Assembly (NCBI RefSeq): GCF_000026945.1
Contig: NC_012866.1
Span: forward strand, 930,001 to 994,000
Source of the DNA: Candida dubliniensis CD36
Taxonomy: Eukaryota > Ascomycota > Pichiomycetes > Serinales > Debaryomycetaceae
Length of the DNA: 64,000 bases
Direction: 5' to 3'
Positions 14,112-64,000 of the stretch are shown here, one piece after another. The number at the start of each line of letters is the position of its first letter. Position 1 is the stretch's first letter. The translations under genes were made by a program, and so were the position numbers. The notes under the pieces were generated by a model that worked only from the letters and a program-made list of their open reading frames with translations, was not told the DNA's origin and made no database searches.

Positions 14112-14807
14112 TTAACAATCGTCATCGGAGTTGTCACCAGCATCGTTGTCGGAATCACTGTCAGAATCATTGTCAGTGCCGTTTCCATTATCATCATCAC
14201 AATCGCTGTCGTCATCTGAATGATCGCCAGCATCGTTGTCGGAATCATTATCTGAATCGTTGTCGGTTCCATTTCCATCATCATCACAATCGCTGTCGTC
14301 ATCTGAATTATCACCAGCATCGTTGTCAGAATCATTATCAGAGTCATTATCGGTTCCGTTTCCATCGTCATCATCACAATCATCCCCGGAACCACATTTC
14401 TTATCACCTTTCTTACCTCCTTTGTCACCGCCATTATTACCAGAAGGAGCAGGAGCAGGAGTATTAGTTTTACAAGTTTCACAAGTAGTAGTGGCTGGTG
14501 TTGGTGCTTGAGTATTTGGTGTGTCACAAGAAGTAGTAACTTGTGTTGGAGCTGGAGCTGGAGTGTCACAAGTAGTGGTAGTTGGAGCAGGAGCTGGAGT
14601 GTCACAAGAAGTAGTGGTTGGAACTGGAGCTGGTGTATCACATGGAGTGGTGGTTGGAACTGGAACTGGAGCTGGAGCCTTTGGTGTATCGCAAGGTTCT
14701 TCACCACCTTTCCATCTTCCTCCTCCTCTCTTGTCTAAGTTTGGAACAGCAGCAGATTCAACAGAAGAAGCAATACAAGCAGCAGTGATGACTTTAGTAA
14801 ATTTCAT
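14112..14807 (-). CDS. Secreted protein with PCDTP repeats and an acidic Asp-rich repeat tail
   Basis: A 231-residue protein. Residues 1-20 are a signal peptide, and Lys-Arg at 26-27 (NLDKR) is a likely Kex2 site that would release a short propeptide. Residues 38-112 hold five Cys-Asp-Thr-Pro units separated by Ala/Pro/Thr stretches and end in CETC. A Gly/Lys-rich hinge follows (about 113-137). The last ~83 residues (149-231) are three repeats of about 29 residues, almost wholly Asp, Asn and Ser with one Cys each. The DxDxD spacing recalls calcium-binding repeats such as thrombospondin type 3, but this is only a resemblance. There is no GPI tail. The Thr/Ser-rich region may be O-mannosylated. 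It is paralogous to 12222-12665, and its function is unknown. Confidence 0.8.
   Translation of the reverse strand: MKFTKVITAACIASSVESAAVPNLDKRGGGRWKGGEEPCDTPKAPAPVPVPTTTPCDTPAPVPTTTSCDTPAPAPTTTTCDTPAPAPTQVTTSCDTPNTQAPTPATTTCETCKTNTPAPAPSGNNGGDKGGKKGDKKCGSGDDCDDDDGNGTDNDSDNDSDNDAGDNSDDDSDCDDDGNGTDNDSDNDSDNDAGDHSDDDSDCDDDNGNGTDNDSDSDSDNDAGDNSDDDC
14115..14363 (-). repeat. Three tandem ~87-bp repeats encoding the acidic tail
   Basis: Three in-frame units at 14277-14363, 14187-14276 and 14115-14186 encode closely similar Asp/Asn/Ser-rich blocks beginning GNGTDND. The last unit is shortened and ends at the stop codon. The second and third differ by only a few substitutions and a one-codon insertion, which suggests recent duplication. 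Confidence 0.85.
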
Positions 14808-38411: not shown

Positions 38412-38507
38412 GATAAAGTGTAGTTTGGAAAGTGATAAGTCTGGGGTTCGACGTTCGTTTTTTTTTGGAGTATTTTTCTACGTTGATAATAAAATTAAGA
38501 TACTATT

Positions 38508-38515
38508 TCACGTGA
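38508..38515. promoter_or_regulatory. Cbf1/Met4-type E-box TCACGTGA upstream of MCY1
   Basis: A perfect palindrome TCACGTGA, about 100 bases before the MCY1 ATG. Cbf1 with Met4 binds this site in promoters of sulphur amino-acid genes, which fits a cysteine synthase-like product. Cbf1 in CTG-clade yeasts also binds ribosomal promoters. Confidence 0.6.
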
Positions 38516-41500: not shown

Positions 41501-42888
41501 ATGGTTATGGAACTATTTCTTTCTTCAGTTATCTCAACCATACCGAGAAAAAAAAAAAAAAAAAGGAATAAACTATCGCGGAAATTCGGATGAGTGACTT
41601 TCTATATCTTGATGGCTTTGAAAGTAAAAGACGTTTTATTTCTGGAGACATGAAAATTTATCAAAGTGGCTAAACCTAAATTGTACCAAGAGAATTTAAT
41701 AACATCAACTTATAGCTTATTCTGTTGAATTTCAATTTAACTATTGTGAGATGAAATTTTCAAAATCAAAAACAACTCAACAGAAATGAACCTATAGCTG
41801 TACCAGCAACTAAAAAAAAAAATATGATGCACACAGCTTAATACAAAAAAAAAAAAAAAAAAAAACGGGAAGAAATGATTTAGTGAGAAACTAAAAGAGG
41901 CACAGGGTTTGTAAACCCTGGCTGACATCTTTCTTCCACCAATGGTCTGTGATGCATATATGGCTATTTTGTTACACAAAAAATGTCAACATCCCATTTT
42001 CATAGCTACTTGCTCTGAACTAAACGACTCCTATAAAGACTGGAATACCAGTTAGCATCTCTACGTACTTAACACAAACCAAAGACATTAAATTAACAAC
42101 AACCTAAAATTATGTTTCATTGACCCTCTTTAATCTGAATGAAGAGAAAAAAAAAAAAAGAAATTTAAAATGATATCCAAAGGGGGAAATTTGAAAACAT
42201 ATAATATTTTTTTAAGATGTATTATGCTATCCGGATTATGTGAGAGAAGTAGAAGAAAAATAATTCAAGCTTACCTAAGTCTCTTACAGGGTTGGTTGAG
42301 AGCTCAGTTACATGTAAATTGTAAAGACAACAAACAAAGTCTTGCCTCCTTCAGAACAATAGAAGAAGGAATGTACTGTAGAAATTTGTTCATTGTTGTA
42401 CCCTTCGATTTAGAAAAGATTATTCGTAAATCCGCCAAACAAACCGAGCAAAACTAAGGTAAACGAGTAATGTTTAATCTCTCTCACTCCCGGGCCCTAT
42501 TGTGTGTTTTTTAACCTAAAGTTTTTCCAGACTAAGCCCTTTCTTAAACTTTTGGTGTTGAGTATTAGGTTAAATTTATTACCGGAGCAAAAGCTTGTTT
42601 CGTGAAGGTGGTTCTAAATGAAATACAAAACACCAAAAGTTTATGTATAACTTGAAATGGAATAATTGAAAGTATTGTCAATGCTGCCAAATAAAGGAAA
42701 CTGTGCCCGCCTTATTCGATAGTATCATAACCCCTTACAAGTACTTATCACAAAGCCAAGTCTAACAAAAAGTTTAAGAAATGGGGTTCTTCTAGTTTTC
42801 TATAGCAATGCTTGCTAAGGGGGTTTGATTAATCACTTCAAGAGACATCACAAACCTTTAACACAACTGGACCTAATTGTTATCCAAT

Positions 42889-44226
42889 GTGAGGTGGGCA
42901 AGCACTGACTTTGACAAGTCTATCCGTTTAAACTACAATCTCCAATTAAAGGTTCATCTTATTCTTCTTCAACAATAAAGAATAGCTTCGTTTAACTGAA
43001 TTAACCTTTTTATAATTTACTTGCAGAATCTTATTTTCAATGCTTTTGTAGACGTGTACTAGAATTGAGTTTAGTTAACCACAAAAACAAAGGAGTTTTC
43101 AATCTGGACTATTTCAAGAGGTGGCGGTCACATACTTGTTGTAGTTCCTAAGCTCTATTGAACGTGCTTGCTTGCCCTTTGATTTTGCCAAGTTTAACAA
43201 TTTAAAGTTGATGTCACCAGTATTTTTTGCTTTCAATACTTCAAAAATGGTTATGATTCTCTCAATTATAATGTGTGATTATTGTGGATCGTTATGAGTT
43301 TAGTTTAAACGCGGATATTTCTTCCACTACAGGCATCATAACCAATGTCTCTCAAAGCTTTCAATACTTGGCCCAAAAAGGGTAAAAAAAATATTGAACA
43401 ACATGAAACTCCTTGTTTTGAGGACATACAGTACAATCCTAAGCTATAAGAATGGATATATATTGCAATGTTAAATATAGGGCTATGGGGACAAGAAATG
43501 TGAGCTTCGGGTATTAAAAAAAAAAAACCCAGTGATGGTGTCCATATTGATCACAAGGATGTAACATTTCATCTAAACTGGAAAGAACATAAACAACTAT
43601 ATAATCCAAAGGATGCTAACTTTAATCAAAAACAGCTGATGGATCCTCCACTTTGGTTTTTCCGGAAAAGCTTATTTTTTTACTAGTGGTATTGGTTAGT
43701 TGCTGAACGTGGTACTTCGGGAAATCATTCTCGAGTGGGGGACAGCTTTTGAGTTTCAACTTGACTTTTTGTAAATGCATAATTACCTTTGTTTATTTTG
43801 GAAATCCTCCAATAGTTTAGTAGCCCACCAACAAAAAGAAATTTAAACCTAAATTATTGCTTCTCAAATCTTTGCCTTTTCTTTCCACGTCAATTTAATT
43901 TCTAAGGAATATTGTAGGTGGTTATGAGATTTGTTTACAAACTATAACCAATGTATAATATTTCCAACACTATTAATTTCAGAACAATTTTACTATTTAT
44001 GAATGGCAGGACCTCTAATAAAATAGATCCCTAGAACCTTTATGATAATTATTTCACCAAGAAAAAATCCATTAGCTTTGGTGAAGGTTATGAGCGAGCT
44101 CCAGGTGGAATTAACTAAAGAGTGTAAAATTATATGTTTCCTTGTGCATATTGTAGAAAACAACTAGGAATAAATAAATCTCTTGACCATCACATGGGAT
44201 CACAAAAATTCATAAGAAGAGGTTAA
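42889..44226 (+). pseudogene. Possible heavily decayed coding relic
   Basis: One reading frame (coordinates equal to 1 modulo 3) contains successive protein-like segments separated by many stops: 42889-42978, 43345-43449 (starting MSLKAFNTWPKKGKK), 43504-43686 (61 codons, with LNWKEHKQLYNPKDANF), 44032-44118, and 44134-44226 (with CAYCRKQLGINKSLDHHM, a Cys2-His2-like pattern). The frame is kept across segments, which argues for decay by substitutions. I do not recognise a parent family. In AT-rich DNA open runs of 60 codons occur by chance, so the call is tentative. Confidence 0.25.
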
Positions 44227-47200
44227 TTTTACCTTACTTCCGCATAGCATTTACGGAGCTCAGGACGATATGGAAATCAAAAAAAAAGAAATGGCATTCT
44301 GTTTGTGTCCAAATATCGAAGTAAGACTGCCCTGTGGAAATCGTTCCATTTTTTTTTTTTTATTGGTGACGGTTCCATAACACCAAATAACCTTTTCTGA
44401 AATTTCTACGCAAAGTCACATACAATGTTGCAATGATTATTAATCTTTGCGGTCAGCCAGACTTGTTGATGTGCACAATTTTTTGATTGCGATCTCCGAA
44501 CCCCTTTTGTGTTTTTTTTGAAACAATTAAATTATACCAGAAGTTAGACCCTTCAAAAAATCAATTACTATTAGGATCTCATTTGGTTTTTTTGATAAAA
44601 TTTAGTACAACTTTTATGAAGTAGAGATTTCATTTTTTCTACCGCCTTCAATGATTCAAATTAGAAATCCTTGTTTTTTTTTGGTGGTTTTTTACATCAA
44701 TCTCGTACCAAAAAAAAAAAATTTATCGTAAGTTTTGATAAATAGCCCCATTCAAAACAATCGCAATTGTCCGGAAAAGCATTCAATACTAGGGCTGATT
44801 ACTTAGAGAATACTTCAATGTTTCGACAATGAATAATTTTTAAATTAAAATACATCAGTTTCTTCTTGTATCAGTCCTTTGCATGCGACATCTACTTTCG
44901 TACAACATCACCTATGATTTTTATGAGTCCAAACATTAGTTATATCTATAACTCTGTAAACACAGCAACATAATGACAAATGGCTCAATAGAGTGACTAC
45001 AACAAATAACCCCATTGTTTGGTGATTGCATCCCGTCAATAGCAGATTGGTTTAGCCTGGTCCTGTCGTACCACAGTTTATCCGGATTGTACGATTATTC
45101 CTTTTCTCTTGTCTAGATTTACATGTTTTAGTTTTGTGACATTTTCAATCTGACAAGAGAATTCCGTAAAATAATTATACGATCTTTTAGATGAATGGAC
45201 GATCACTAACCTGCATCTCAATTATCCAGCAACATCAGCTTTGATTCAAATCAATCAAACTTGGTCTACAGTGATACCCAAAAAGAAAAGGCGTGTTTGG
45301 CCACTCAAGTTCTTTTTTGTCAATGACTTTTCTTTGCTATTGTTTCTTTCTTCGTGAGACGATTGACCTTCCTTCCCTAATTTTAGGACTTTTTTTTTTT
45401 TTTCTTTGTTTCCAATCAAGTGAAGTTTCCACTCCGAATTTTTTGGGCTTTAAACAATAACATGGTTATTTTATTGTAAGACATTGAATTTGTAGTTAAA
45501 CAGTGAATACCAAACTATCACAAAGTGCACAGTCTTGATTGTTCAACAAGAGAGAATATACGCGAATTGTTATCTGGTGCATCGTGCATATCCATGGCAA
45601 AAGCATGAATCCCTTATTTACAAGTCACTATGGACATTGCTACCTCCCTAAATAACACTTTAGCTGGGTATAAGAAGTTGTGATAAATATGAATTATACT
45701 CTCGGTTCAACAAAGAATAAAGGAAAATGTCAAACCCAAAATAGAATCCTGGTTTTGCGTGTTTTTGGCCTTCCCTTCTATGTCAACATATCTTGACATT
45801 AAGCAATCTAATCGTATGATGATTAACACTGCAATCGAGAAATGATAAGTTAATATCTTGAACAATTACATGTCTGTTGACAAGCAGTCAGTATTTGCAC
45901 CACGAAACGATTTATTTTAGTTTGAAGTCAATAAGCATTAATCTCTGTCGTCAGCAAATTACATTTATAAAGCTAAGAGCATATACCTGCAGCACATGTT
46001 CTGCCAACCCAAATTCTTCTCACAGGTTTGAACCTTGGTTTTTGCTAAGGAAAGTTTTACGCTTCTTTTTGATTTTTGGTAGATCCATTGCAAAGACTTG
46101 GTAGATAATATTCAATCGAATTTTTCTTTAGTGGACGAATACTTCCGCCATACATCTAGAAGAATTGCTTCCTTTGTTCTAATCTTACCTGTCAAGTTCA
46201 AGAATGGGCAGGAATGTGTATTAGTAGTGTGAATGTAAACAATAGAAGAATTTATATCCATGGAAGCACAAAGTATACCACTGTGGCTATTATCTCCGTT
46301 TTCCGTATCTCTTGATTTTTTCCAAAAAAAAGAAACGCCTATCTGAGTTTCTATCTTAGTACTTTGATTTGGAGAAAAAAAACGCAAAAACTTGTTTCTG
46401 AGTGGCAAAAATGACAATTGTAAAATTAAAGATGTTGTAGAGTTGCATTGTTAATGTCTCACCTGTATCCACTAAAACTAAAATTAATTTGCCATGGCTA
46501 AGTATACTAGAAGTATCAAACGTTTTAAGAATTTAAACTCATACGACCAGTAGCTTCTATAAAGGCAAAAACAAGGCGGGTCCATGACTCCGAAAAAGAA
46601 GAAGAAGAAAAAAAAAAAAAAAACGTAACATCTGCTAAGCAACCAGGAGACCAGATGTCATTAACTCAACGCCTCCAAAAAAAAAAATAGAGATCTGGTT
46701 TTAGTTTTGCTTGTTGAGTAGAGATTTAGTTAATTAATTTGGAGTTTAGGTCGCATTTTTAGTTACACAGGAACTAAAAAATTGATTTTGGTGCAATCTA
46801 CATAAGCAACAACTGTTGTTCCAAAATCCGAGCAACCCAATATCTGTTGATCTCGTAAAGAATAAACAAATTAGATAGAGACCCCAATTGCTTGGCTTTT
46901 TTCTTTAAAAAAAGCACGCCATCGTTCGTATTTAGTTAAATACTTACTTCTTGAGTATTTTTTCTGCCAAACTACTGGTGAAACACATTCATTAACATTT
47001 TCAAATTGCTGCTACTATTGTTGCTGTTAACAATGTTTGATAGCTCCCCCCACGTCTGTCTTGTTTATTATTTCTAATGAATGAAAAGTACAGGAATTCC
47101 TTGACAACACAAACTTCTGTCCTCTTTCACTGAAACTGAATATAAGGCAAGTAATAGTGTACATTTTACAGCAAGCTAGGGCGTTTATTCACAAACTCTT

Positions 47201-49836
47201 AATAACAATAGATATGCCACAATCTTTGGCAATCTTTATAATCTAGAAAAAGTATCATGTCATAAGAGGTGCACACAAAGAAAAGTCGTGTCAAGGTTAC
47301 TACGCAATAATAATGGCTTGTATTATATACAGGTTTCTTTTTAGGGGATGTGATGGTTGTTAAAGGAGATGTTGTTGAGGTTAACATCTGACGCACGGTA
47401 TTGTTGATATTAGGGGGCTAGCAACTGAGAGTTTATGCTTCAAACAAAGAATTAGTACGTTTGTTTATTTTCTTTTTATCAAAAAAAAAAAAAAAAAAAG
47501 CTGATAGTATCAGATAATATTGTAAATATAGGGAACGAGGGATCCAATGAAAGGGAGGTAGAGATGGTCCGGAGGGATTCTTTTTTTTTTCTTTTACTAA
47601 GAAAATGAAACTTGAAAGGGAACAGGGAAGAGGGTGCAATGGGAACAACCTCTTCCTGTGCTAGGTTTTTTTTTTTTTTTTTTGTTCGATGATGTTCAGT
47701 TTGCTTCGAGGGAAGATTTCTTCAGCTGCACCATACGAATATTCATCTCCTACTTCAATTGTAATTCGCTGAAAGACAATTGCACAACACAAACGTGTCT
47801 GGCAGTGAATATTAACTTTGTTGAGTTATTTTCAATATTCCCACTCACTTTGGTAACACAAATCCAGTTAAGACAGGTTAATCTTATGAGGGCAGCAAAT
47901 TGCATCTTGAGATATTCTGGTAGCTTTGTCGTACACAAAAACTCGCATGCCTGTATATAACCCCAATGGAAATGCTGTACATAGTATGATCAACAAAATC
48001 AAACGTTTTCTTTTCCAGGTGCTACTTCTGTTTCTTTATAAGTATATTTAGATCAAAGTTAGCGGAAAGAAATGTATAATACGTTTACAAGTTAGAACAA
48101 TTGATAGGTGGTATCTATTAATGTTATTTGTGCATAAAAAGAAAAATTTGTGTTCACATAACCCACGACCACTTCTTTGTAGTCATTACTGTTCGTATCA
48201 ATAACCTTGCTTCCCCTTCTATTTAGAACAACCAGAATTATAACTTAAACAATTGTAATTACCATAGTAGTATTTTATAATGAGAGCATTGATACAAACC
48301 AGATAATGCATGCAAAAAAAAAAAAAAAAAAAAAAAAAGATCTTACAATTGAAAACCAAGAAATAGAAAAAACAATACAAGATTGTCTCCCAAAAAAGTT
48401 GTCACATTGTATTCATGAAATGTAGTGTTGTTTTAGTTAGTTATGCGTACACTTTATTTCAACAAAAATGGAAGAGCGGGATAATATCTCTAGGGAAGAC
48501 CTAGCGATATCATATTCCATTATTGTTAAGGAAATTCAAGAATTGCACCACTAATGGTACAAGCTTATCGGGACATCTTGCAACTAGATTACTCTTGAAT
48601 AACAGCCTAGAGAAACGAGCTTATTCGATTATAGACAAGAGAGGACAATCTGCCTTGTTTCTCTCAAAAGCCACCGTTATTACAGCTACCAAACACAACC
48701 CTCCAACTACAACATATTTAACTTCTATTAGGTATTTGGTTCTAAAAAAAAAAAAAAACCTTGTGAATGTAACTAACAACATGCGAAAAATAATCTGCAA
48801 GAGCTACAAAAATTAAGCTCGCACTTTCATTTGGCACATAACCATGCATTAGTCCACCTACATATATATATGTATGATAAATTAATTGCTTTTTTTGTTA
48901 CACTTTTGTATAATTCTGAGTTTTGCATTGATTATTGTTTGTTGCATTTTCTTGTTAGTATTTAGTTTATTTGAATCACAAAAAGCACAAGTTGTTAATC
49001 CCATCAAATAATAAAATTGCCTTCTTGGTTTTTCTGGTTTGTTTGGATTTGTGTGACTTTTATTTGATCAAACAATAGAAACTTAAAGAATGAAAGAAAA
49101 TCGTGATTTCTTTTTATCCTGTCGATATTTGTGTAATTTAACTGAATTTCAAGTAAGTTTCCACTATACTTGGGTTTTCCCTTTATTACACATATTCTAT
49201 ATAAATCTCCATGTACATCTATCTAACTAGTGGTGGATCCAAAGGTATAAAGATATGAAGATTTCCCTCTGTTTTTTTTTCAGCCAAATTTTAAACTACT
49301 TGATTTTTCCTTTTTCCTTTTTTCTAATATCTATATTATATCATCCACTTCAAACTTACAACAATTAGGGATTGTTAATATTATTATTATCGTATTCAAC
49401 CCCGTCTTCACTTTCTTCTTAATTTTACAGACGTTACACATTAAGAACTGTTATAATAATTAGTAATAACTTGTTTCAATTTTCAGGTTACTATTTGTTG
49501 ATATTATATTTTTGGTTTTAGCTGCTAAATAATTTAATTTGAAGAGAAATTTTTTTTTTTTTCTTTTGATTATAATAAATTCAATTGCAAAAAAAAAAAA
49601 AAAAAAACTTAGAGAAAAAAATTATCACCTATCTTATTATTTACAACTAAGAATTAAAAATAACAAAAATAATCCTACTATCTACTAAGACTTTTATTAC
49701 AGAAATTGCTTACAAAGAACCTTGTTGTTTAAAGTATCTTCCAGAATCTGAACCAGGTATTATATAAATAACAACTAGAATCATCATCCAAGTTTTCTTT
49801 TGCTAGTTTCATTAGATTCTCATACTCATCACAAAT

Positions 49837-50796
49837 ATGCTTTATCAACAATCATATCCAATAACAAATAAATTGTTAAATGCTGACACTGCTGGTAGTA
49901 CCTCCACATCTTCTATCATGGACGGTGGGTGTACTTTGTCCAAACCTGGTAATGCTAAAACAAAATCAGCAACTTCATTACCTTCATTCAATGAACTACT
50001 TACCTCCATCCCATTACCAAATGAGTTTAAGCCAGCAACCAACAATACTAAACAAGGAACGTCACCAACTACAGTGACATCTCCTTATAGTTATTACATG
50101 GGTCCACCAGTTCAACATCGTTTACCAACACCACCACCATATCCAACAAGCTCCCCAACAATAGCAACGGCTGCCACTCCGTTACCACAACACTCGCCCT
50201 ACTTACAGCCGCAACAAACACTACAACAACCTCAACCCTACCATCAACAGTACTACAACTATCAATATGCTGCTACTTCTGCTTCTGCTGTTGCTGCTCC
50301 ACCTCCTTATCCTCACTCCACCCAAGTGAGCTCTATTCCACCACCACCATTACCAACAACATATCACCAACGCAACCAACAACCTGTTTACCAACAGAAT
50401 GGCGGAGTACCGATTATGATCAGACCATCACCAGGATTAATCACTCCTACATCTACTACTTTTGACCATGCCAAGATACGGTCAAATTCTACTGGAAATA
50501 TATCTAATACCACTAGTAGTCAAAGTAAAGACCCAAGAAGAAAACATGTTTGCAAAGTGTGTTCGAGGTCGTTTACCACTTCAGGACATTTGGCAAGACA
50601 TAATCGTATTCATACTGGAGAAAGAAAACATCAATGTCCTTGGCCAACTTGTGAAGCCCGTTTTGCTCGTCAAGATAATTGTAACCAGCATTACAAAACT
50701 CATACCAATGGAAAAAATAAACGAAACAGACAACAACACAGGAATGTGGGATCTTCACACGTTGCAACAAAATACAACACCAAGAGCTTAGTATAG
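49837..50796 (+). CDS. NRG1: C2H2 zinc-finger transcriptional repressor Nrg1
   Basis: A 319-residue protein. The N terminus (MLYQQSYPITNKLLN) and SLPSFNELLTSIPLPNEF are Candida Nrg1 features. A Pro/Gln/Tyr-rich middle (about 85-195) is typical of repressors that act through Tup1-Ssn6. Two C-terminal C2H2 fingers (about 230-284) begin CKVCSRSFTTSGHLARHNRIH and are joined by the HTGERKHQC linker. In C. albicans and C. dubliniensis Nrg1 represses hypha-specific genes, and its loss drives filamentation. It binds (A/C)(A/C/G)CCCT-type sites. TATA-like sequences at about 49198-49204 and 49246-49252 imply a leader of around 550 bases or more. Confidence 0.93.
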   Translation: MLYQQSYPITNKLLNADTAGSTSTSSIMDGGCTLSKPGNAKTKSATSLPSFNELLTSIPLPNEFKPATNNTKQGTSPTTVTSPYSYYMGPPVQHRLPTPPPYPTSSPTIATAATPLPQHSPYLQPQQTLQQPQPYHQQYYNYQYAATSASAVAAPPPYPHSTQVSSIPPPPLPTTYHQRNQQPVYQQNGGVPIMIRPSPGLITPTSTTFDHAKIRSNSTGNISNTTSSQSKDPRRKHVCKVCSRSFTTSGHLARHNRIHTGERKHQCPWPTCEARFARQDNCNQHYKTHTNGKNKRNRQQHRNVGSSHVATKYNTKSLV

Positions 50797-53700
50797 ATAT
50801 GATCGAATTGTACTTTTATGAAATGTTGTATTATAAAACAGGTTAAATGGATGGTTAATTGCTTACATGGGTATATTGTTTGGGTTCAAAAAAATTTTTT
50901 TTTTTTTTTTTTTTTTTTGTTATTGCTACTGATATAGGTTTTCGTTTTTATAATCTCTTTACTAATATGATTTTATCTTCAATTATAAATATAAACTTTG
51001 CCTATAGTCCAATTACATTTACTGTTGAGAGATTGTAAAAATTGAAGGTAATAACAACCTCTAGTCGTCCCTTGTGGTTCCATTTTATCCCTTTGTTCAT
51101 GACTTTGATTATTATATACTATGAAAACTGGCCGGTTTTATTTTCTGCAAATTAAACTCCGACATTTATTATCTTTCCTTTGTGTTTGTAGTAGTATTTT
51201 TTAACGCATACTGTTAATGATTATTACTCTCAAGATTCGTGCTATTGGTGTTCCTTCCTGGGCAAGTATAATCTTCCAAATACGAGAAAGTAACACCGAG
51301 GCAATTCTCAAAAAAAGTTCTGCTATTGTTTAGATCCTCTCGTCTTAAACTTGACACAAATAAAGATAAACCATATATGACAAATTGGATTTATTAAAAA
51401 GTTCTTTATATACAAACACATTTCAAAGAGTTTATATCTTATGACAACATATGATGGAGCTTTTGTGTTGCTGAAGTCAATAATAAAAGCTATCCAATTT
51501 TAGGTTTCATTTACACTTTCTTTTTTAGGGTTTTACATTCACTTGCATCATGATAGATCTTCTCCTCCCCTTATAACCCTATAGAGATAATATTTGACAA
51601 GGATTCTATTAATTCCACCCACGTGGTTTGACTGTTCTATATTTTTTTTTTATTTATTTATTTTATTGTGATAATTATTTCTTCATCTTGAAGAGTTGTG
51701 TAAAAAATATAATGTTGTTTTCCCCAAAAATGTCAACCATTCCCAAGAATAATGTCATAATAAATCAGATGTTTTATGGAGTTTATTCTGCCCTTGTATA
51801 TAATATTAGTCTGTCGTTCTAAGTCAAGTTCAAGAAAACTAGTATTCCAGTATCAATGTAACCATATCCAAATGTAACAGAATTGGTCACTAGAAAAACC
51901 CCAAACCGTGTCCATGTGATATATTGGTAGGACCACATAGTAACAATTACAACAAAAAAAAAAAAAAAAAGGTTTCAAAAGACGTTCCATTTATAGTCTG
52001 GAAACGGGGTTGTAACATGAAGTTATAATAATATTATATTTTTTTTTAGCGCTAATTATACCATCCTTTAAATACCGGATCTGGCATAACTAGAAAGCCA
52101 CCAGAAAAAAAAAAACAAAACCTTTAGAATGTCGAAGATGCCAATCATCGGTTGGAGAAGCTCCGCTATGATGTGAATTGGAAAACGAATTTACCAACAG
52201 ACCAAAATAATGATTCCTCGTTCACTGAGTATCCTTGAAATAAATTATTTAGCCAATTATATACTTGAAACAGGTGACTTTTATTATTATTTGAATTAAA
52301 ATGCTGCTCATTTATTATTCTTGACATGTAAACCCCCCCTCCTCTAATTGTACACTACCAACTAGCGAATTATTGCAAACTTTAGATTTCTTTAGCCCAT
52401 GGTGACTACCAGAAGATTAATTTATAATAATATTATTATTGCTATACGCTAATTTCGTTTGTGATGGATTGTGTTTTTTTTTTTTTTTCTTAGGGGTTGC
52501 AATATTTCTACTTCAACAAGTTACATAATTTCGCAGCCTAGTAAAAAAGAAATCATCTACTCCAAGACATTATTAGTAGGAGATGGAATAATTATGGCTT
52601 TAAACAGACAAAGCCCCTTAGTGAGATACCTTTAATATTACATTTTGCTTAATAAAACACTAAATGCTTGTAAAAGTGCTAGTCTCCAATTTGCTATTTA
52701 GAGTATTAGCGTATAATTATACAAACCTTATTTGTTAAACAAAATTATGAAATAAAGGGTTTTCTTTTTTTTTTTTCTAAAATTAAAAAGAAACACAAAT
52801 TATGAATGGCTACAATAACCTATAGGGGTAGAAATATCCTGAAAAAAAATAATATCAATAGAAAATACAGTAATATTATATAAAAGAATTATTACAACCT
52901 GGGCAGAAATATTTTCCCCTAAATGTAGTTGTTTTACTACCCCAACAATTTATTATGGTTGCTTCTTTTTGAAAACACTAAATAATAACGTTTATATTGG
53001 TGATCAGTATGGAAAATATTTTAATTTTTAGCTTCAGTCCTTTAAGATTTACAGTTTCAATATTGGCTTTTTTTTTTTTTTTATTCTCTGGTAGCACTTT
53101 GTTTTTGACACAAGGGTACAACAACGTTTACATTATATACTTTAATTGGGGGAAACAGAACCCAAAATTTTTTCTTATTATTTTATAAAAATGCATGTGC
53201 TATTTGGTCACAAAAGCTTCTTTGGTTTATAATGACTCTTTACACGACGAGACAACAACAGTGAAGGGTAATATCGTTCTCATGTAAGGAACAATAAGAT
53301 TAAGTTTGTAACAAGTGACAAAAGTTGATTTCGTCACAGGGTAGTACTTTATAATGACCTCACTTTTAGGAGAAAAAACCCAACCTCTGTTAGATAATTT
53401 CAGGTACAACAGCAGTTTCCCTATGATCCATTAAATGCAACAGTTAGAAAATGATGTTGCATTTATGTCAAAACTTCCCATGATGGTGTTTTAAACTTCC
53501 CTATTGTGCAACATTGGGTGGAGATAACCCAAAAAAAAAAAAAGGCAAAACTTGAGATGAATTTTTCCTATTTTCGTCAAGTACGGCCGTGTATCATTCA
53601 CAGTGGATACAATCCCAAGCCAAAGCTACTATTTCCTTGTAGTCAGGAAATGATCAGAAAGCAACCACAATTGTGAGTACTTAAAATAGCTCTTGAAACA

Positions 53701-56700
53701 ATAAGTTGTAATCATGCTAAGCTAAAACTTTCTATAAAGGGACGATGATCGATTGGAATATGACATAGAAACAATAGATAAATATATCTGAGAAGAACAA
53801 TACATTTTTTTTTTTTCTAAACAAAATGTTTAGTACTTACTATACTCATGTTACAATAACATTTCGAACAAAAGCAAGGGCTACAATGAAGGGGACTAGC
53901 TCCCCTCATTATAGATCTATAAAGGAAAGACAACACTCACAACCATTATTTCTGGTTTACTTTTATTGTCGTCCAGTAAACTAAAAGAACTTTGACTTTT
54001 GTAGTTTTGAAAATTTCAGGTTATTATTTTTGGGGGTTACTATTTTCTTAATTTCATTTTTGAAAACCCCAGAGCCCAATTTTGACCAGTCGAGATCTAC
54101 ATGGAACTAACAGTTGTCCCTGTTAAATAGCCAATCTCAGGAAACGACGTAATTGGTAGACACAATTCATATCGATCGTCTTTTTCTTTGATAACTGTAG
54201 TTTTGTCCTTATTGTTAGACTTATTCTCATCAAAGTATGACTAACAATAACATAGGATTCACAAGTCTAATTATTGATCTAAAAGAAAACTAAATAAACT
54301 TACCCAAATAAAATTTTGATAGTTAAGATAAAATACAACCATTTACTAAATTTCAAAAATAAAAAAGGGATGTTTTAGTCGTCAATTCTGCAGAGTTTAG
54401 TTGATAATAAATAGGTTTGTGTTGTTAGTAAAGGAATCAGAGAAGGGGAAAAAATCACAGACAAGCTCGTTCAAACCAAGACAAAAGAGAGAGAGAGAAG
54501 AAACAATACACGAAGTTTGATACGTACAAACTTGTTGGGCAAATTGGCATGATGTCAAACCAAGAAAAATATTAGGGTTTTCCGAAGAGAGCAGTCTGGG
54601 ACGGGCATAACTCGTTTGAACCCTAGATAATATATAGCCAGTTTTAAACATGTGCACACTATCTTAGGTGATTGTTGATCGCTATGTTTAGAGAATCGCG
54701 ATAACTTGAAATTTACTAATACTAATGGGTTTAATATGCTTTTGTGGTAGTGAAAGTCTAAAATCATTAGAAAAAGGGGTGAGGGGAAAAGATTTGGCAA
54801 CTACTACACGAAAAGCATTAACAAAAGAGATTTAACCCAAGAGTTTTCCATATTTTGTTCTCCGTGTAGGTTTGATATTGTTTATTGTTTCTATGCAAAA
54901 AACTTGGGTAGAACCCAACTAGGTAAATGTAATTCAACTCTAAAATTCCAAAGATAACCAATTTGTCCTCATGGTACATGTAGAAAAATAGAATTCGGCT
55001 AGTGTTTGTTGGTAGCGAAATAATTAGAAAAGGTCACCATAGGGTATGCCTTGTTTCAGGGGTGAATTTGTAGTGTTTGATTGGTTGGTTGCATATACCG
55101 AGTTGGCCAATGTTAAGGGCGGGATCTTGCTGGGTTGATCTTGCTTTCCATTTTCAAGGGGTTACAAAAACAGATTGGGAGCAATATATCTTTAGTGAAT
55201 AGTCTTAAAACTAAAAATAGACTTCAAGATACTAGTCCTGAAATTATTGCTACTATTTTTTCCCATCTCACCCTCACTATTTATACAGATTATGAGCCCC
55301 CGCGGTGATGGGTCTTTTAAGGGTCATACCGCTAGCGGAAATGAGTAGTGCAACCCCGAATAAACTAAACTAAACTAAATTCACCCAAAGGGTTAAAACT
55401 TCTAGACTTGTCCTTAAATCGGGGTCACACTCATTGGAACAACAAAAAATCACCTTTACCTTGCACAGAGACAAACTTCATCAATGATAGTGTAATAGAA
55501 ATCATGGAATCTCGTAGCTGCAAGAGCTCTACTAACCAATCCACACTCACCACGTGTTTTATAAAATATTCCCAATCATGATGTAAGAGTTGAATAGTTT
55601 GTATGTGGTTGTTAGAATTGAACTCTTTTCAATTTCTTTTTTTGGGGGAGGGGGGGGGGGGATTATTTGCAATGTGGGACACACAACTTTAGTTTCTTTG
55701 TTGAACATTATCCTAAGAAACCTTCTATCATTAGTATGTGTTTGGATATAGACTGCACTATTATCTCGCTATATTCGGTGAATCTAAATTTGTCTCTTTT
55801 TGTCTACCATTACGTGTCTTCCTTGAAATTATGTTGGGCGATTTGAGAATGTTGGCTTTGAATTGAAAAATGGGACCATTACCAACACTTGAGTTAGCAA
55901 CCAAGTTGAAGAGTGAAACAAAATAACCGTCGATAGTATTGTTCTCGATTACGTAAACTTTCTTTGTTTCCCTCTTACTAGAACGCACTTGTTCTGACCC
56001 ATTACTTGTATTGTTTTTTCAATCTGGGCTGTTCTATAATATATTGTACTATATTTTCTATTGTTGCTTTTTGGTTTTCAATTCGAACATTCCAGATTGA
56101 TGCGGGAATTTGTTTTGGTTCTTTAATTGTTTTAGGGTCGATAGATTATGCATAATTGATGATATTGATTAAGTTGTAGCAAGGATGAAATGATAAAAAA
56201 GAAATTTGTTTAGTAAACTAAACTAAAACTTATTACGCAAATTGGTTTGATGTTCCGCTTACGTTAGTCAGTATCTGGACAGTTTTTATTTGATGATACA
56301 AAACCACTAACAAAGAAAGAAGCAAGCGGACTATCACTCCTATAATCCGCAACCTAGTGAACAAAAACAAAACAATCACCCGCCACTTTTTTGCAATACT
56401 TGTTTGAAAACTGGTTGTCAAGTCAATTAAATTAAATTATTACCTGATTACTTTAATCGTATTCAGATTGCATACTATGCTTGTTCTTCAAGATTCAAAA
56501 ATCTCAACAGTCCTCGTAAATAGATCTCCGTACCACAGAGGTAAAAGAAAAAAAAAAAAAATACACGCTTTAGAGTAGTTAAACATCAACCACAGTATCC
56601 GCCTCAAGAGAAAAAAAAAAAAAAAAAAAAAAACACATGTTTGTAAGATCTATCTTGGAACTAAAACAATATTTTGTGGCATAAGAATAGGTAAAGTATA

Positions 56701-57161
56701 GAGCTATGCTCTATTTGCAAACGTTTTAGCAATTTTTAGAGTTCTGAATTTAAATAGAGGTCAGATTAGTCCAAAACTTGTTGAATTATACATGTACATC
56801 CTAGATCCTAAAAGCATGAAGGAATAACACAAACAGACAATAGCTATTGTTATTTTAAACAAAAAGAAAGCAGTACTTTGTTTCTATATTTTTCCTAATC
56901 CGTACAAATTTATAACTAGAATACCTTCTCATTTTCTTTTTAAAACAATACAGCACTAGTAACAAAATTCTCAGAGCCTATTCATTAGTTTATCTATTCT
57001 ATTGTATTAAAATCTAATTCTTGTAAGCCAATTCTTGGGACTCCCTCTAATCAGGATATATAAGTTTTGTGCTATTAATAACTGCTCAATTGAGCATCAT
57101 ATACGTTTGACCCAAATCCAAACAAATTGGTTAGGCAAATATGTTTCTTTTCTGGTCCTTA
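50797..57161. other. 6.4-kb region without convincing genes, downstream of NRG1
   Basis: NRG1 and the F-box gene converge across this gap. No ORF of note is present: the longest frames are under 90 codons and lack homology I can recognise. Contents include long T/A tracts (for example 50895-50918, 51955-51971 and 56609-56632), a run of 12 G at 55650-55661 and a GC-rich patch at 55294-55338. No tRNA was found. A gap this long between two gene ends needs more than two 3' UTRs to explain it. Confidence 0.55.
55294..55380. other. GC-rich patch with palindromes and a TAAAC tandem repeat
   Basis: In AT-rich surroundings this stretch has CCGCGG (55300-55305) and the perfect palindrome CCGCTAGCGG (55329-55338), followed by about four TAAAC units at 55361-55380. 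A TATTTATA sequence lies just before it (55279-55286). It may be a fragment of a retrotransposon LTR, but I cannot define TG...CA ends or a target-site duplication. Confidence 0.25.
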
Positions 57162-58931: not shown

Positions 58932-61900
58932 GGTTGTTGGTGGGTTACTTCAAGTGTTTTCCAATATGTAGTTTTTTTTTTTTTTTTTCAAACTGCAGAT
59001 CGCACCACATTGCTTGCCCAACAAAATAGCTTCTGGCACGTGCACTGTACGACATGCCACCAACAAAAGTGGGTGCAAAAAGAAACAGCCTAAAATGAAG
59101 TAGAAAAGTATTTTGTTGCTTTGCAGAAAAGGAATATTTGCATGTCCCCACCAAAAGTGTAAATGGAAATTTATAATAAGTTTTGTGTTCGGTTATGCTT
59201 CAAGTCAAGATAATGTATTGCCACAATTGTTGCTACACAATCAAAACCCAATCTATAACTGGTCCACAGCAGCAAAACAGTGTTTTCTTGAACATTTGCA
59301 AGTTCGGATAAGAAGGATTCATTGACATCAAAAGTTTTGTACTTAAAATTCTTTATAGTGTGGCGGTGCATATTGGATAAAACCAAATCTAATCCTTTAG
59401 CATTGTGAGTAGGACTTCTTGTTTTATCGGTATAATAGCAGATAAAGGTATGCGCCCAAAACCAATTTTAGTACTTTAGTTGTAGTGATTTACCAAACAT
59501 CTACGAATATGTTCATTTTTAGGATCATTTATCAGCAAAGAAACATTTCTTGCTGAATTTACTGAACCAACCAAGAATACAATCCTTTGCTTATCACAAA
59601 CAATAGAAGAATAAAGATAAAGGTACGCAGGAGTACTAATACTTGAGTATGGCTTACTTCTATGTTTGTCTGTTTCTCTGAATCTATCATCATATCCGCG
59701 CTATCGGTAATAAATCCGAGATGCACAATCTAAAATATATTTGTTTGTGTAACATGTCATTCAAGGTCAAATCTGAATAAAACATGAAAATGAGATTCAC
59801 TCAACGAAAGCGCAAATACTACAAAACTATTCCAATAAAGCAATCAAAGTCTTCTTACGTCATAGATATAAGAAAAAGACATTACTAGAAAGTTGAACAA
59901 TAAGCCTAACTCTGAAATGTTGATTAGACACGGCTATTTTTCAACAACCTTTTCACAAGCGCTGAGTACGTTTTGGGATTTGAGGCTTGAGCTGTGGCAA
60001 CAATCATCACTAACTGAAGTTTAATTTCTGTCACTTATTGTTAACTTTTGTTTTTATTGCTTTGGTCAACACTGCCATGTCATTTATGAAATTACTTTTT
60101 CCTAAACCTTTGCTCTGAAATTTAGCAAAATTACGTAGGATTACATATACGATTGTTAAATCCGTTACAGCCACAAGGCTGACATCAAACACAAAGACAA
60201 TTAGGAAAATTCATAACGAAACAAAATTGGAAAAATTATTTGAGCTCGGTTTAAGTATTCCTAGGAAAAGGGGGGTGTTACAAATACACAACTAACATAA
60301 TACTTTTTCTGTTGACGTATGCTTGACGTACTAATCTCAAGACAAAAACGATGAGCTGCATTTAGTACTTCTAAACTGTGGAGCGATCAGGAAGAACCGT
60401 CCTTATTGTTATTGGTAGCCAATTTCATATGTAATTGGGCTTTTAAGAATAACCCAGATAACAAAGATTCGACATGTGAAAGCTTGTGATATGAGACTTT
60501 AGTTGTCAGCCTAATGAGCTATAAAGTATCGCTAGGAGAGTAGAAAACTGGTAAAAACTCATTTCAGTATTGATATCTATAAATGCTTTTGTGCAACTTG
60601 TGGCACATAAATATCTGCAAAATTACATTTTTTTATGTTGATAAGTATATCATTGCTAATATTAACGATAAAAACGTACCTGCCATTCTTGTTTTATTTT
60701 ACGTTATCGATTTAGTTATCATTTTGTCTATTCGTGTTTGTGGATATTTTAGTACAGTAAATCACGTCATAAATGGAATAATGACACGCTTGGTAAAAGA
60801 TCCCACATTAATTTCTTGGACTGGTCTATTGTACCTTCCTTGTTTACCCCTGGTTGTTGTGTCTCCGTTATTTAGTCCTTCTCTTGTCAAAGATTGACAG
60901 AATTACCGGTATTCGAAATGTAGAGTAGATTCAACATCAAAAATAACCTTATATATGTTGTGGTGGTTTGGGTCTTTCTTCGGTGGCTGTTTCAATTATT
61001 TGGATGAGTTATTTGTTCAGACCGATAACAATTATTCCAGAATTGATTGAAAAGGTTTGATATTTGCTGTTCCCAATCGAGTAATCAATATTATTTAACT
61101 TGGAACTAAAAGAAAAACAATAAAAGATTAAAACATTCTTTAGTTTTAGTCCAATCGTAAGACAGTAACAATAGAGCATCTTTGCCAAAAAAAAAAAAAG
61201 TTCGTGTACTAGTGACAAACATGTGTTGCTTTAAACTCGAAGAGAAATCAAAAAAAAAAAAAAAAAAAAATCTCGAAAACACCAACTGTTGCTTACAGGT
61301 ATCGGTGGATCTGACCAAGGTAGAATGCTATTTTCACGGCTAGTTTGTGGGAAATAGATCTCATGGCAACAAGAATATTTACAAGAGATACCGTCTATTC
61401 ACAAAACTATTTCATCAAGTGCACATTCGTAAGTTTGATACCCGACATTGCTGTGTATTTCAGTTGATCAATCCATGTGAAATTGTATTGCGTCAATACG
61501 AAAGTTGCTTTCAGACCTCAAAATGGATTACTCGGAACGTATTGTTACCATTATACTGACATTGGATGCGAGATTTAAAAAGTTGCTGTTAACTTATTTT
61601 TGAAATTGTCGTTGTTTGATACTTTATTGGAACTGTGGATGATAGACAAGATTGCATTTCAGGTTTACAATAGCGATTTATTGTACGAACCAGTGCAATA
61701 ATACAGATACGGTCAGATTCACAATTCGAAGTTATTAAATTATCAGCTGTTTCTGCTTCTTTTTTTTTTTTTTTGGGAAGTAAGCTTTCTCGACTAAATT
61801 TTAGACGTGTTAACTCCGCGCCTTATTGTTGATATTGCGCAGTTAATTATACTTTGGTTCCAGTCCTTTGTGGTTTTTGTGATCATCTTTATCTGAATTT

Positions 61901-62180
61901 TTTGCAGTATCAATAAGAAAACTTATTCAAGAACGTGGATATCACAATTGCAGTAACTTTTGGTGTCAAATTGGATAACAAATGCTTGATAAGAGGAAAT
62001 GTACACCACAGTGCTCTCATTGTTTCTTTGAAATTTGACAGTATTTTAATAAGAGACCAGTTTACAAATCTCAAGTATAAATATAACAGAATATCCTCCA
62101 TGGTAATTGGTTTTATCATCTATAATCAATCAACAAGAGAAGAACAATTCTACTTTAACCTTCAATTTTTAATATCAACA
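58932..62180. other. 3.2-kb region without convincing genes
   Basis: Frames here are short. The longest with an ATG (60583-60897, 104 codons) is hydrophobic and AT-driven with no recognised family. A T tract at 58972-58988 lies before the F-box gene, an A tract at 61251-61270, and a T tract at 61759-61774. A TATA-like TATAAATATAA at 62075-62085 lies about 100 bases before the small secreted precursor gene. No RNA gene was found. Confidence 0.5.
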
Positions 62181-62495
62181 ATGAAATTTACTCAAGTCTT
62201 TACTGCAGGATTATTTGCTTTATCCACTCAAGCTGCTGCTATTCCAAAAGAGTCAAACACTGAAGTCAACAAAAGACTTGACGCTGGGTTTGATGCTGAA
62301 GGTGCTGCCGATCTTTTCCATCTTATCCAACTTGGCGGTGGTGTTGGCGCAAATGTCTCTGTTAAGAGAGATGAATCTGCTGATACCGTCGAAGAATCTA
62401 AGAGATTTGACGCTAACATTGATGCTGAAGGTGCTGCAGACTTTTTCCATCTTGTTGATGTTGCTGGCAGTAACGAAGCAAATATTTCTGTTTAA
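62181..62495 (+). CDS. Small secreted precursor with two Lys-Arg-bounded peptide modules (Kex2-processed repeat protein type)
   Basis: A 104-residue protein with a signal peptide (MKFTQVFTAGLFALSTQAAA). Lys-Arg pairs lie at residues 31-32, 62-63 and 74-75. The segment 33-61 and the segment 76-104 are each exactly 29 residues and identical at 17 positions, sharing DAEGAAD, FHL and AN(V/I)SV. A 10-residue acidic spacer (64-73) separates them. This is the layout of fungal Kex2-processed repeat proteins: Golgi Kex2 cleaves after KR and Kex1 trims the basic pair, releasing two related peptides. Neither module has Cys or a farnesylation motif, and they differ from the alpha-type pheromone. Function is unknown. 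The frame extends far upstream from a non-ATG codon; the ATG at 62181 places the signal peptide at the N terminus. Confidence 0.82.
   Translation: MKFTQVFTAGLFALSTQAAAIPKESNTEVNKRLDAGFDAEGAADLFHLIQLGGGVGANVSVKRDESADTVEESKRFDANIDAEGAADFFHLVDVAGSNEANISV
62277..62492 (+). repeat. Two 87-bp coding repeats of the peptide modules
   Basis: Units at 62277-62363 and 62406-62492 encode the two 29-residue modules. Their middle parts (GATGCTGAAGGTGCTGC and flanking bases) are nearly identical, the ends more diverged, so the duplication is not new. Confidence 0.75.
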
Positions 62496-63323
62496 GTTGA
62501 TGCTGTTGCACGTACAATCAATACCGACGATACTGCAAGTGTTTTAAAAAACAGTCTGCTCAACTATTTCTTTATTTGCGTGAATTTTTCTAACCTCTTT
62601 ACATCTATCTTGATGATAAAATGATTTTAATTTTGAAATTTTATCTCCTAATTTGTTTTTTTTTTTTTTATGTGGGAGAATGACATTGATTTGTAAAGCA
62701 ACATGCTTTTATGGAAATCAGTCTATTTTTTTAGTTATACCTTCGTGAACATTCACATTTATATTTTCGGTTCTATGCTTCTATATCCAATAGTGTTTTT
62801 TTAGTGAATATATTTTCTATAATAATTACTTTGTATGATAATGCTGGCTTTTGTTTTGTTGAAACGTGAATACAGACTTTGGTTAGACGTAAACTTTTGA
62901 TAGTTGCTAATGTTACATACACATCACGTTTTTCTTACTAGTGTTGTCAAATACTTGCATCTGCTTTAGTAAATGCTCGTTAGGTGATTATTGGGAGTAA
63001 TGTATAATTGTTTTTAATGAGGTTTCGCATTATTTGTAACAGAAAAAGTTTTTGTTTGTTGCAAATCACGGCTCTTTCAACTAACAAAGAAAATGGAATA
63101 TTGAAAACACAGTGGAGAGGTATTCTTATTTGCCAGTTTTGGCATGTGAACGCCACAAAGATGGAGCTTTCACACTAGCCCTTATTTTTAACCCTAAGAA
63201 TCTAATGTAAAGATAAAGAGGGAGAATATTCCTACAAAAGTAGTGCAAAATAGAACACTTAACTCCTCACATGTAAGCTACTAAAAATTGGTCCATGCTG
63301 ATTAGTAATCTAATAGCAACACA

Positions 63324-63348
63324 GTCGGCACAAAATTATATAGCCGAC
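63324..63348. promoter_or_regulatory. Inverted repeat GTCGGC-N13-GCCGAC
   Basis: A perfect 6-base inverted repeat with CGG and CCG cores, typical of Zn2Cys6 transcription factor sites, about 350 bases upstream of the transporter start. Confidence 0.4.
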
Positions 63349-63596
63349 ACGGCTACATTTACTTTTCACATTCAAATCACAGCCCCAGATACGATTTCAC
63401 ACTGTCTACCAAGATCTTTCTTTCGCCACATGTCACACCTCACAAAGGTGGCAACTCTCGTATCGTAGGCGCTATAGGATGCTAATAAAAGTCCCACGGC
63501 TGTCTCCCCCCCCCCCCACACGTCACTTTCTTGTGGCCGCGCGGCTGTTTCAGTTTATTACCGAAAATTTCAAAAATAGAAAAATATTTGTAACCA

Positions 63597-63621
63597 GCGG
63601 AGATACGAAATATATATCCGC
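63597..63621. promoter_or_regulatory. Inverted repeat GCGGA-N15-TCCGC
   Basis: A perfect 5-base inverted repeat with CGG (63598-63600) and CCG (63618-63620) cores, just before the TATA box. It is a second candidate zinc-cluster site in the same promoter. Confidence 0.4.
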
Positions 63622-63697
63622 CACTATAAATGCCACAGCTGTCGCCATAATTTAAAATTTGGCTATGAATTCTTCTGTCTGTTTTTTTCTTCAAGCA

Positions 63698-64000
63698 ATG
63701 TCTACCAAAGCCCCATCTATATCTAGCGAGGAACAATCAGTAGCTGTGAAACCGTACGAAGGGATTTCCGGTGAACAGTTCATCCAAGACACTAGTGAAA
63801 ATGAAATTTTACAAATTGAATCTAATGTCGAAGCATCAAGAGCATTGTCGAGAATAATATCAGATAGTGACGCTGTTTTAGAACGTTCGCTATCTTCAAA
63901 CGAGCCACTTCCTCCGATGGGTGGTGGTAGAACTTATCCCCCATTATTAGGATCCCGTGACCCATATGTCGTTACATTCGATGGTCCCGATGATCCTGGG
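63698..64000 (+). CDS. 5' end of a DHA1-family MFS transporter (TPO2/TPO3-like)
   Basis: The frame is open to the window edge (101 residues seen). The protein starts MSTKAPSISSEEQ, has a polar Ser/Glu-rich cytosolic N-terminal region, and reaches RDPYVVTFDGPDDPG at residues 87-101. The PYxVTFDGPDDP motif comes just before the first membrane segment in polyamine and drug:H+ antiporters of the DHA1 family such as Tpo2/Tpo3 and Flu1. The membrane part lies outside the window. An in-frame ATG at 63665 would add 11 residues (MNSSVCFFLQA); I prefer 63698 because its start is polar as in the family, but cannot exclude the longer form. Gene order next to NRG1 suggests a TPO2-type gene. Confidence 0.8.
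   Translation, partial: MSTKAPSISSEEQSVAVKPYEGISGEQFIQDTSENEILQIESNVEASRALSRIISDSDAVLERSLSSNEPLPPMGGGRTYPPLLGSRDPYVVTFDGPDDPG

What the first reader, a model, noticed from the sequence alone, without database searches (positions are those of the whole stretch)
62181..62495. Probable Kex2-processed precursor releasing two related 29-residue peptides
A signal peptide is followed by two modules of exactly 29 residues, 17 positions identical, each preceded by Lys-Arg, with a short acidic spacer ending in another Lys-Arg. The second module ends exactly at the stop codon. This symmetry is hard to explain except as a peptide precursor. It matches the general plan of fungal Kex2-processed repeat proteins, some of which are pheromones, repellents or lytic peptides. 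I do not recognise this peptide family.
Basis: partly seen in the sequence, partly recalled or inferred. Interest (0 to 1): 0.75.

Follow-up and report, generated by a model that had tools for sequence, protein, structure and literature searches.

The report
Two-peptide secreted precursor in Candida
A small yeast gene encodes a secreted-looking precursor that is built to be cut at Lys-Arg pairs into two related 29-residue peptides, and it belongs to a family of such precursors in Candida-type yeasts whose job outside the cell is still unknown.

Summary
Window 62181-62495 (+) encodes 104 residues: signal peptide, Lys-Arg, 29 residues, Lys-Arg, 10-residue acidic spacer, Lys-Arg, 29 residues, stop. 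The two modules share 17 of 29 residues; 0 of 20,000 shuffles reach that, best 11. The Kex2-precursor reading is supported. The same genome holds a 315-residue paralogue with five more 29-residue modules between KR sites, plus four of a second type. Homologous precursors occur in Candida maltosa and in unnamed records. Of 17 A-type modules in six proteins, 16 are exactly 29 residues. Flanks on both sides match the paralogue's, so a whole gene was duplicated. A published C. albicans protein, CA0365, cut to peptides by CaKex2 in vitro, is probably a relative; its sequence could not be checked. Processing in vivo and function are unshown. The peptides are acidic, not unusually amphipathic, and lack alpha-pheromone features, so the lytic and pheromone readings are weak. 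Best guess: secreted surface-acting peptides. It is a new member of a known kind.

The parts
62181..62495 (+). coding sequence of the 104-residue precursor (P0001), stop TAA at 62493-62495
   Evidence: homologues
62181..62240 (+). signal peptide, residues 1-20 (cleavage after ...QAAA by the -3,-1 rule, by eye; no predictor available)
   Evidence: sequence; 19 of the first 22 residues identical in the C2 paralogue; pN/pS 0.30 over residues 1-32
62241..62270 (+). short pro-segment, residues 21-30
62271..62276 (+). Kex2 site 1 (KR, residues 31-32)
62277..62363 (+). module A1, residues 33-61, 29 residues, net charge -4
62364..62369 (+). Kex2 site 2 (KR, residues 62-63)
62370..62399 (+). acidic spacer, residues 64-73, 10 residues, net charge -5
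62400..62405 (+). Kex2 site 3 (KR, residues 74-75)
62406..62492 (+). module A2, residues 76-104, 29 residues, net charge -6, ends at the stop
62076..62082 (+). TATAAAT, 105 bases before the ATG, inside the stretch shared with the paralogue's upstream region (TATAAAT 143 bases before its ATG)
62020..62159 (+). 5' flank homologous to the 5' flank of the C2 paralogue
   Evidence: (400 bases): score 50; 0 of 1000 dinucleotide shuffles reach it (max 35); best of 47 other 400-base stretches of 38500-57000 is 28. Halves tested alone are weaker: 110 bases before the ATG 2 of 1000, distal 290 bases 4 of 1000. Alignment
62552..62680 (+). 3' flank homologous to the 3' flank of the C2 paralogue
   Evidence: (200 bases): score 33; 0 of 1000 dinucleotide shuffles (max 28); best of 93 other 200-base stretches is 21

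Best explanation
The gene encodes a secreted peptide precursor. Signal peptidase removes about 20 residues, the Golgi kexin (Kex2) cuts after the three Lys-Arg pairs, and a Kex1-type carboxypeptidase trims Lys-Arg from the first module and the spacer. The second module needs no trimming because it ends at the stop. This releases two 29-residue acidic peptides with matching ends, plus a 10-residue acidic spacer. The gene is a short, diverged duplicate of a longer precursor on contig C2. Role, inferred and much less certain (about 0.35): the peptides act at or near the cell surface, as proposed for CA0365 by analogy with the Ustilago Rep1 repellents. The confidence given is for the precursor and processing model. 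Sequence anatomy, homology and duplication are shown; cleavage, secretion and role are inferred.
For: KR dyads, module length and order are kept in the paralogue and relatives: 16 of 17 A-type modules in six proteins are exactly 29 residues (A-type assigned by eye). Residues 23 onward alone are homologous to the same part of the C2 paralogue, C. maltosa G210_1802 and P0010: 0 of 1000 shuffles each. All 37 KR sites examined in the six proteins have an acidic residue within P1'-P4', 32 of 37 in P1' or P2' (no composition control run, and sites in repeats are not independent), in line with the excess of acidic or small residues reported at cut sites of fungal kexins (PMC2515848, passages). The genome holds one P_proprotein (kexin-type) match and four Peptidase_S10 matches. 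Between this gene and the C2 paralogue dN is 0.289 and dS 0.678 (no significance test). CA0365 of C. albicans, described as three conserved repeats each with an internal Kex2 site and no terminal fragment, was cut to peptide size by recombinant CaKex2 (passages); that description fits the layout of P0003 plus P0004.
Against: No cleavage product, transcript or peptide was observed. The identity of CA0365 with this family is inferred from a description, not a sequence, and some C. albicans proteins with good sites stayed uncut in the same study. The modules evolve faster than the signal peptide: pN/pS is 0.63 and 0.61 for A1 and A2 against 0.30 for residues 1-32, so constraint on the released peptides is modest. 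No orthologue of this short two-module copy was found in another named species (in 15 and 34 only the 7998 candidates sharing most words were scored); P0002 is the same protein. The structure model has mean pLDDT 42. For the surface role: neither module is more amphipathic than its own shuffles (155 and 270 of 500 reach it).
Confidence: 0.82

Rival explanations
1. The released peptides are mating-type or quorum-type signals, that is, an alpha-pheromone-like precursor.
For: Same general plan of signal peptide and KR-bounded repeats.
Against: No Pfam match to the alpha-factor families (only DUF6616 at E 0.24, below its cut-off). None of the 37 KR sites examined is followed by the XA or XP dipeptide that Ste13 removes. 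At 29 residues the modules are longer than the 9-24 reported for alpha pheromones (PMC6339444, passages).
Confidence: 0.08
2. A candidalysin-like membrane-active peptide precursor.
For: Same group of yeasts, same processing plan, similar peptide length (31 residues for candidalysin, abstract of PMC5784256 in the listing); the longer paralogue's A modules are fairly amphipathic (24-36 of 500 shuffles reach them). Candidalysins are helical and amphipathic (PMC11323794, passages).
Against: Both modules are acidic (-4, -6) and contain no Lys or Arg; their amphipathicity is not above shuffles (155 and 270 of 500). Ece1 itself was not fetched or compared here, so homology to it is untested.
Confidence: 0.1
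3. A relic: a short, decaying copy of the longer C2 precursor without a function of its own.
For: The C2 paralogue has nine repeat modules, this copy two; the modules are less constrained than the signal peptide; no orthologue of the short copy was found in another named species.
Against: The frame is intact, all three KR sites are kept, dN/dS is 0.43 overall, and both modules keep 29 residues. The 145 bases after the stop show no resemblance to the paralogue's modules (346 of 500 dinucleotide shuffles reach the score), so there is no sign of a recent loss of repeats; homology with the paralogue's 3' flank starts 56 bases after the stop. Upstream sequence with the TATA element is also kept.
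Confidence: 0.2
4. The KR pairs are not cut and the protein works whole, for example as a small wall protein.
For: Some C. albicans proteins with well-scoring KR sites remained uncut by Kex2 in vitro (PMC2515848, passages).
Against: The model shows no confident fold that would shield the sites (pLDDT 42); three KR pairs are placed exactly at module borders, and this is conserved in relatives.
Confidence: 0.1

Closest known systems
C2 paralogue in the same genome (L002:823-1770, minus strand, 315 aa)
   Same: Near-identical signal peptide, first module starting at residue 33, 29-residue A modules between KR sites, acidic spacer after A1; flanks homologous on both sides.
   Different: Five A modules plus four modules of a second type (27-29 residues); modules more amphipathic and, for the A modules, less acidic.
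Candida maltosa G210_1802 (P0009) and unnamed P0010
   Same: Same plan; A modules of 29 residues (3 of 3 and 2 of 3, the remaining one 28); 3 of the 5 modules aligned carry AAD-x-L-H-L, close to this gene's AADLFHL.
   Different: More modules, second-type modules, and a shared non-repeat C-terminal segment that this gene lacks; whole-module identity to C. maltosa is lower (9 of 29 for A1, 6-9 for A2) than A1 has to the C2 modules (12-14).
CA0365 of C. albicans (Bader 2008, PMC2515848; abstract, passages and section 27 seen)
   Same: Conserved repeats with Kex2 sites, no terminal fragment; cut to peptide size by CaKex2 in vitro.
Ece1 (candidalysin precursor) of C. albicans
   Same: Kex2-processed secreted multi-peptide precursor in the same group of yeasts.
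   Different: Modules here are acidic and contain no Lys or Arg. Sequences were not compared.
Rep1 repellent precursor of Ustilago maydis
   Same: KR-separated repeats, linear peptides of similar length (37 residues, PMC6339444, passage), no Ste13 signature (passage).
   Different: Ten repeats and a terminal fragment; PMC2515848 notes no sequence homology when likening Ece1 and CA0365 to Rep1. Not compared here.

Membership tests
KEX2-processed repeat proteins (KEPs, PMC6339444) | signal peptide | tested here: inconclusive
   MKF...AAA reads as a classical signal peptide and is conserved in relatives, but no predictor was run.
KEX2-processed repeat proteins (KEPs, PMC6339444) | internal repeats with KEX2 sites between them | tested here: met
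   Two modules, 17 of 29 identical, KR at each border.
KEX2-processed repeat proteins (KEPs, PMC6339444) | at least three similar fragments (minimum of the published pipeline) | tested here: not met
   Only two similar fragments (criterion in passages). The C2 paralogue has five A modules and would pass. So it works like a KEP and is kin of one, but falls outside the operational definition.
Candida precursor family defined here (C2 paralogue, C. maltosa G210_1802, P0003, P0004, P0010) | 29-residue A modules bounded by KR, first at residue 33-35, with conserved A10, L16, G22 | tested here: met
   A10 and L16 in 15 of 15, G22 in 14 of 15 aligned modules (the exception, S, is A2 of this gene); homology without signal peptide 0 of 1000 shuffles against three members.
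Candida precursor family defined here | that CA0365 belongs to it | not testable with these tools
   Its sequence is not in the main text and supplements could not be opened; only the layout fits.
Ascomycete alpha-pheromone precursors | MF_alpha or MF_alpha_N domain | tested here: not met
   No such Pfam match at E up to 10.
Ascomycete alpha-pheromone precursors | XA/XP Ste13 dipeptides after the KR | tested here: not met
   0 of 37 KR sites examined in six family proteins.
Ece1/candidalysin precursors | sequence homology to Ece1 | not tested
   Ece1 was not fetched.
Ece1/candidalysin precursors | amphipathic helical released peptide | tested here: not met
   Hydrophobic moments 0.27 and 0.26, reached by 155 and 270 of 500 shuffles; helices over the modules in the model are at low confidence.
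Ustiloxin-type cyclic peptides | UstYa/DUF3328 gene near the precursor | tested here: inconclusive
   No PF11807 match in the whole genome, but the control genomes rang in none either; PMC7329392 reports none in Saccharomycetes (passages).
Rep1-type repellents | surface-active amyloid-like fibrils | not testable with these tools
   Needs synthetic peptide.

The most novel reading that the evidence does not exclude
A secreted peptide family confined to CTG-clade yeasts, in which a short duplicated precursor supplies acidic 29-residue peptides that act as partner or antagonist of the more amphipathic 29-residue peptides of the long precursor. The retained upstream sequence would allow the two genes to be made together, giving a two-component extracellular assembly or signal of a kind not described for kexin-processed peptides in the papers seen here.
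Probability: 0.1. Interest if true: 0.72.

Novelty: new member of a known kind. Interest (0 to 1): 0.42.

Why it matters
Kexin-cut repeat precursors in yeasts include the alpha pheromones and the candidalysin precursor, and Bader and colleagues note that fungal kex2 mutants have many-sided phenotypes while few substrates were known (abstract). A conserved family with a fixed 29-residue product, present in two genes of one Candida genome and in relatives, adds defined, synthesizable candidates. The published survey's three-repeat minimum would pass over two-module members such as this one, so such precursors may be undercounted in yeasts (inference).

Tried and rejected
Longer array cut short by the stop: the 145 bases after the stop were aligned to the paralogue's coding sequence and were no better than shuffles (228 of 500 mononucleotide; 346 of 500 dinucleotide), so this is not supported, although translated matches run 11 codons past the stop at E 4.07 with C. 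maltosa and 8 codons past it at the end of the match with the C2 protein.

Precursor on contig C1 (L006:1501-1986): looked like kin at E 0.02, but only the signal peptide matches strongly (0 of 1000 shuffles); the rest matches weakly (11 of 1000 reach the score) and its module does not match the C2 paralogue (471 of 1000). Treated as a separate case, though 11 of 1000 leaves distant kinship open.

Pfam matches of the C2 paralogue (Phage_connect_2 above its cut-off, DUF7849 just above its own) were taken as effects of repeated alanine-rich sequence; not tested further. No solved-structure relative at E up to 10. No relative among the prokaryote genome contigs. No Rfam family in 59000-64000 at the gathering score. 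The bacterial promoter scan is not meaningful for a yeast. The structure model was too poor for a fold search. Full-text search for six module strings found 0 papers; search for six locus names around the gene found only a paper naming NRG1; neither covers most subscription papers or supplements. CA0365 sequence or orf19 name: not found in the main-text passages seen. PMC10989805 and PMC12578311 were looked at in passages and hold other Kex2 substrates.

Rows left out of the module and KR counts: P0002 (same protein as P0001 with the upstream extension), P0005-P0008 and P0011-P0015 (short or frame-broken), and the 9-residue end fragment of P0003 from the module count. P0003 and P0004 share one identical module, which was counted in both for the length count and once in the 15-module alignment; the 28-residue third module of P0010 was left out of that alignment.

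Full report
Setting. The window lies at 930001-994000 of contig C8 in a genome of 14,618,422 bases in 8 contigs. From recall this size and number fit Candida dubliniensis CD36; no tool names the organism. A gene at 49837-50796 with C2H2 zinc-finger matches, all below Pfam's curated cut-offs, reads as NRG1 (recalled; NRG1 is CD36_73890 in PMC3626690, passage), and a frame that looks like a transporter by eye follows at 63665. The precursor's translation is the same under tables 11 and 12.

Anatomy. The 104-residue frame 62181-62495 has a signal peptide (by eye), a 10-residue pro-segment ending in KR, module A1 (29 residues), KR, the spacer DESADTVEES, KR, and module A2 (29 residues) to the stop. 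Identity of A1 and A2 is 17 of 29; in 20,000 shuffles the best was 11. Three or more KR dyads occurred in 3 of 50,000 shuffles. Past residue 23 there is no Lys or Arg outside the KR pairs. The net charges of A1, spacer and A2 are -4, -5 and -6.

Relatives in the same genome. A search of the whole genome gave six matches at E up to 10: the gene itself, four on contig C2 that belong to one 315-residue frame, and one weak match on C1. The C2 protein cuts at KR into five 29-residue A modules and four modules of a second type (27, 29, 29, 27 residues), with an 8-residue acidic spacer after the first A module. Its first A module also begins at residue 33. Searching with the C2 protein, or with C. 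maltosa G210_1802, returned only these two loci, on C2 and C8.

Relatives elsewhere. The protein search with P0001 gave 7 of 31 candidates at E up to 10. P0002 is this protein with the upstream extension; P0003-P0008 share the C2-type signal peptide and module type and are unnamed (C. albicans is my inference, because they differ little from the C2 protein). The C2 protein found C. maltosa G210_1802 alone, and the alignment search gave 14 proteins, among them P0010, unnamed, 205 residues; in both searches only the 7998 candidates sharing most words were scored. In the six proteins used, 16 of 17 A-type modules are exactly 29 residues; the exception is 28. In 15 aligned modules A10 and L16 are invariant and G22 is kept in 14. 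From residue 23 on, this protein matches the C2 protein, C. maltosa and P0010 with 0 of 1000 shuffles reaching the score in each case. A1 of this gene shares 13 of 29 positions with P0010's first module, 12-14 with the C2 modules and 9 with each C. maltosa module; A2 shares 10, 6-9 and 6-9. The short core AADLFHL is closer to C. maltosa and P0010 than to the C2 gene, while over the whole module A1 is closer to C2 than to C. maltosa; whether this copy kept an older core is therefore open.

Duplication. The 400 bases upstream of the two genes align with score 50 (0 of 1000 dinucleotide shuffles, max 35; best of 47 other stretches of the window 28), including a TATAAAT. Tested apart, the 110 bases before the ATG and the distal 290 bases are weaker (2 and 4 of 1000). 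The 200 bases downstream align with score 33 (0 of 1000, max 28; best of 93 others 21). The copy therefore most likely arose by duplication of the gene with its flanks. Overall dN is 0.289 and dS 0.678. pN/pS is 0.30 for residues 1-32 and 0.63 and 0.61 for A1 and A2, on small numbers of sites and without a significance test. No trace of further modules was found after the stop.

Processing. All 37 KR sites examined in the six proteins have an acidic residue in P1'-P4' and 32 have one in P1' or P2', without a composition control. Bader and colleagues report an excess of acidic or small residues there among cut sites (PMC2515848, passages). They also report that CA0365 of C. albicans, with three conserved repeats each holding another Kex2 site and no terminal fragment, is cut rapidly to peptides by CaKex2 but not by ScKex2, and that other proteins with good sites stayed uncut (passages). 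P0003 and P0004 share a module and, read as overlapping, show such a layout, so CA0365 is probably a relative; its sequence is not in the main text. The genome has one P_proprotein match and four Peptidase_S10 matches, so enzymes of the right kinds are there; which S10 gene is Kex1 was not determined.

Function. The alpha-pheromone reading fails two tests: no Pfam domain and no Ste13 dipeptide at any of 37 sites. The lytic reading is weak for this gene: acidic, no Lys or Arg, hydrophobic moment not above shuffles (155 and 270 of 500), whereas the C2 A modules reach about the upper 5-7% of their shuffles (24-36 of 500). AlphaFold gives mean pLDDT 42 with low-confidence helices over the modules, so no fold is claimed. 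What remains best is a linear secreted peptide acting at the surface, the role that Bader and colleagues proposed for CA0365 by analogy with Rep1; I put this at about 0.35, with signalling, partner or antagonist of the long precursor's peptides, and decay as alternatives.

Against this reading. No transcript or peptide evidence exists here; the only other record of the short form found is the same protein (P0002); the modules evolve faster than the signal peptide; the link to CA0365 is indirect; and by the published three-repeat rule (PMC6339444, passages) this gene is not a KEP, though its paralogue would be.

Verdict. The family is not new in kind, and part of it was probably seen in 2008. 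The two-module copy and the fixed 29-residue module were not met in the listings and passages that I saw, and a full-text search for module strings found 0 papers.

Noticed in passing
L006:1501-1986 (contig C1, 2167980-2168465, +): A 161-residue secreted-looking protein ends in two 31-residue modules that are 30 of 31 identical, separated by KR and an acidic spacer, the second ending at the stop: the same layout as the finding in a sequence that matches strongly only in the signal peptide.
   Followed up: partly
12222-12665 and 14112-14807 (minus strand): Two neighbouring secreted-looking proteins with related N-termini and CDTP repeats, one with a long Asp/Ser-rich tail; no Pfam family above its cut-off.
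   Followed up: partly
P0006, P0007, P0008, P0011-P0015: Several unnamed records carry C2-type modules in frames that look broken at different places, two of them (P0011, P0013) from contigs of the same length; this could be sequencing error in repeats or real variation.
   Followed up: no
L002:823-1770 (minus strand): In the C2 paralogue A modules and second-type modules share a core like ANILNLIQ, unlike the A modules of C. maltosa and P0010, which may point to homogenisation between module types within the gene.
   Followed up: no
38412-49836: An 11-kb stretch upstream of the NRG1-like gene holds no frame of 100 or more residues read from ATG under table 12.
   Followed up: no
L020:6081-6488: A further secreted-looking 135-residue frame lies close to the two-module gene on contig C1.
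   Followed up: no
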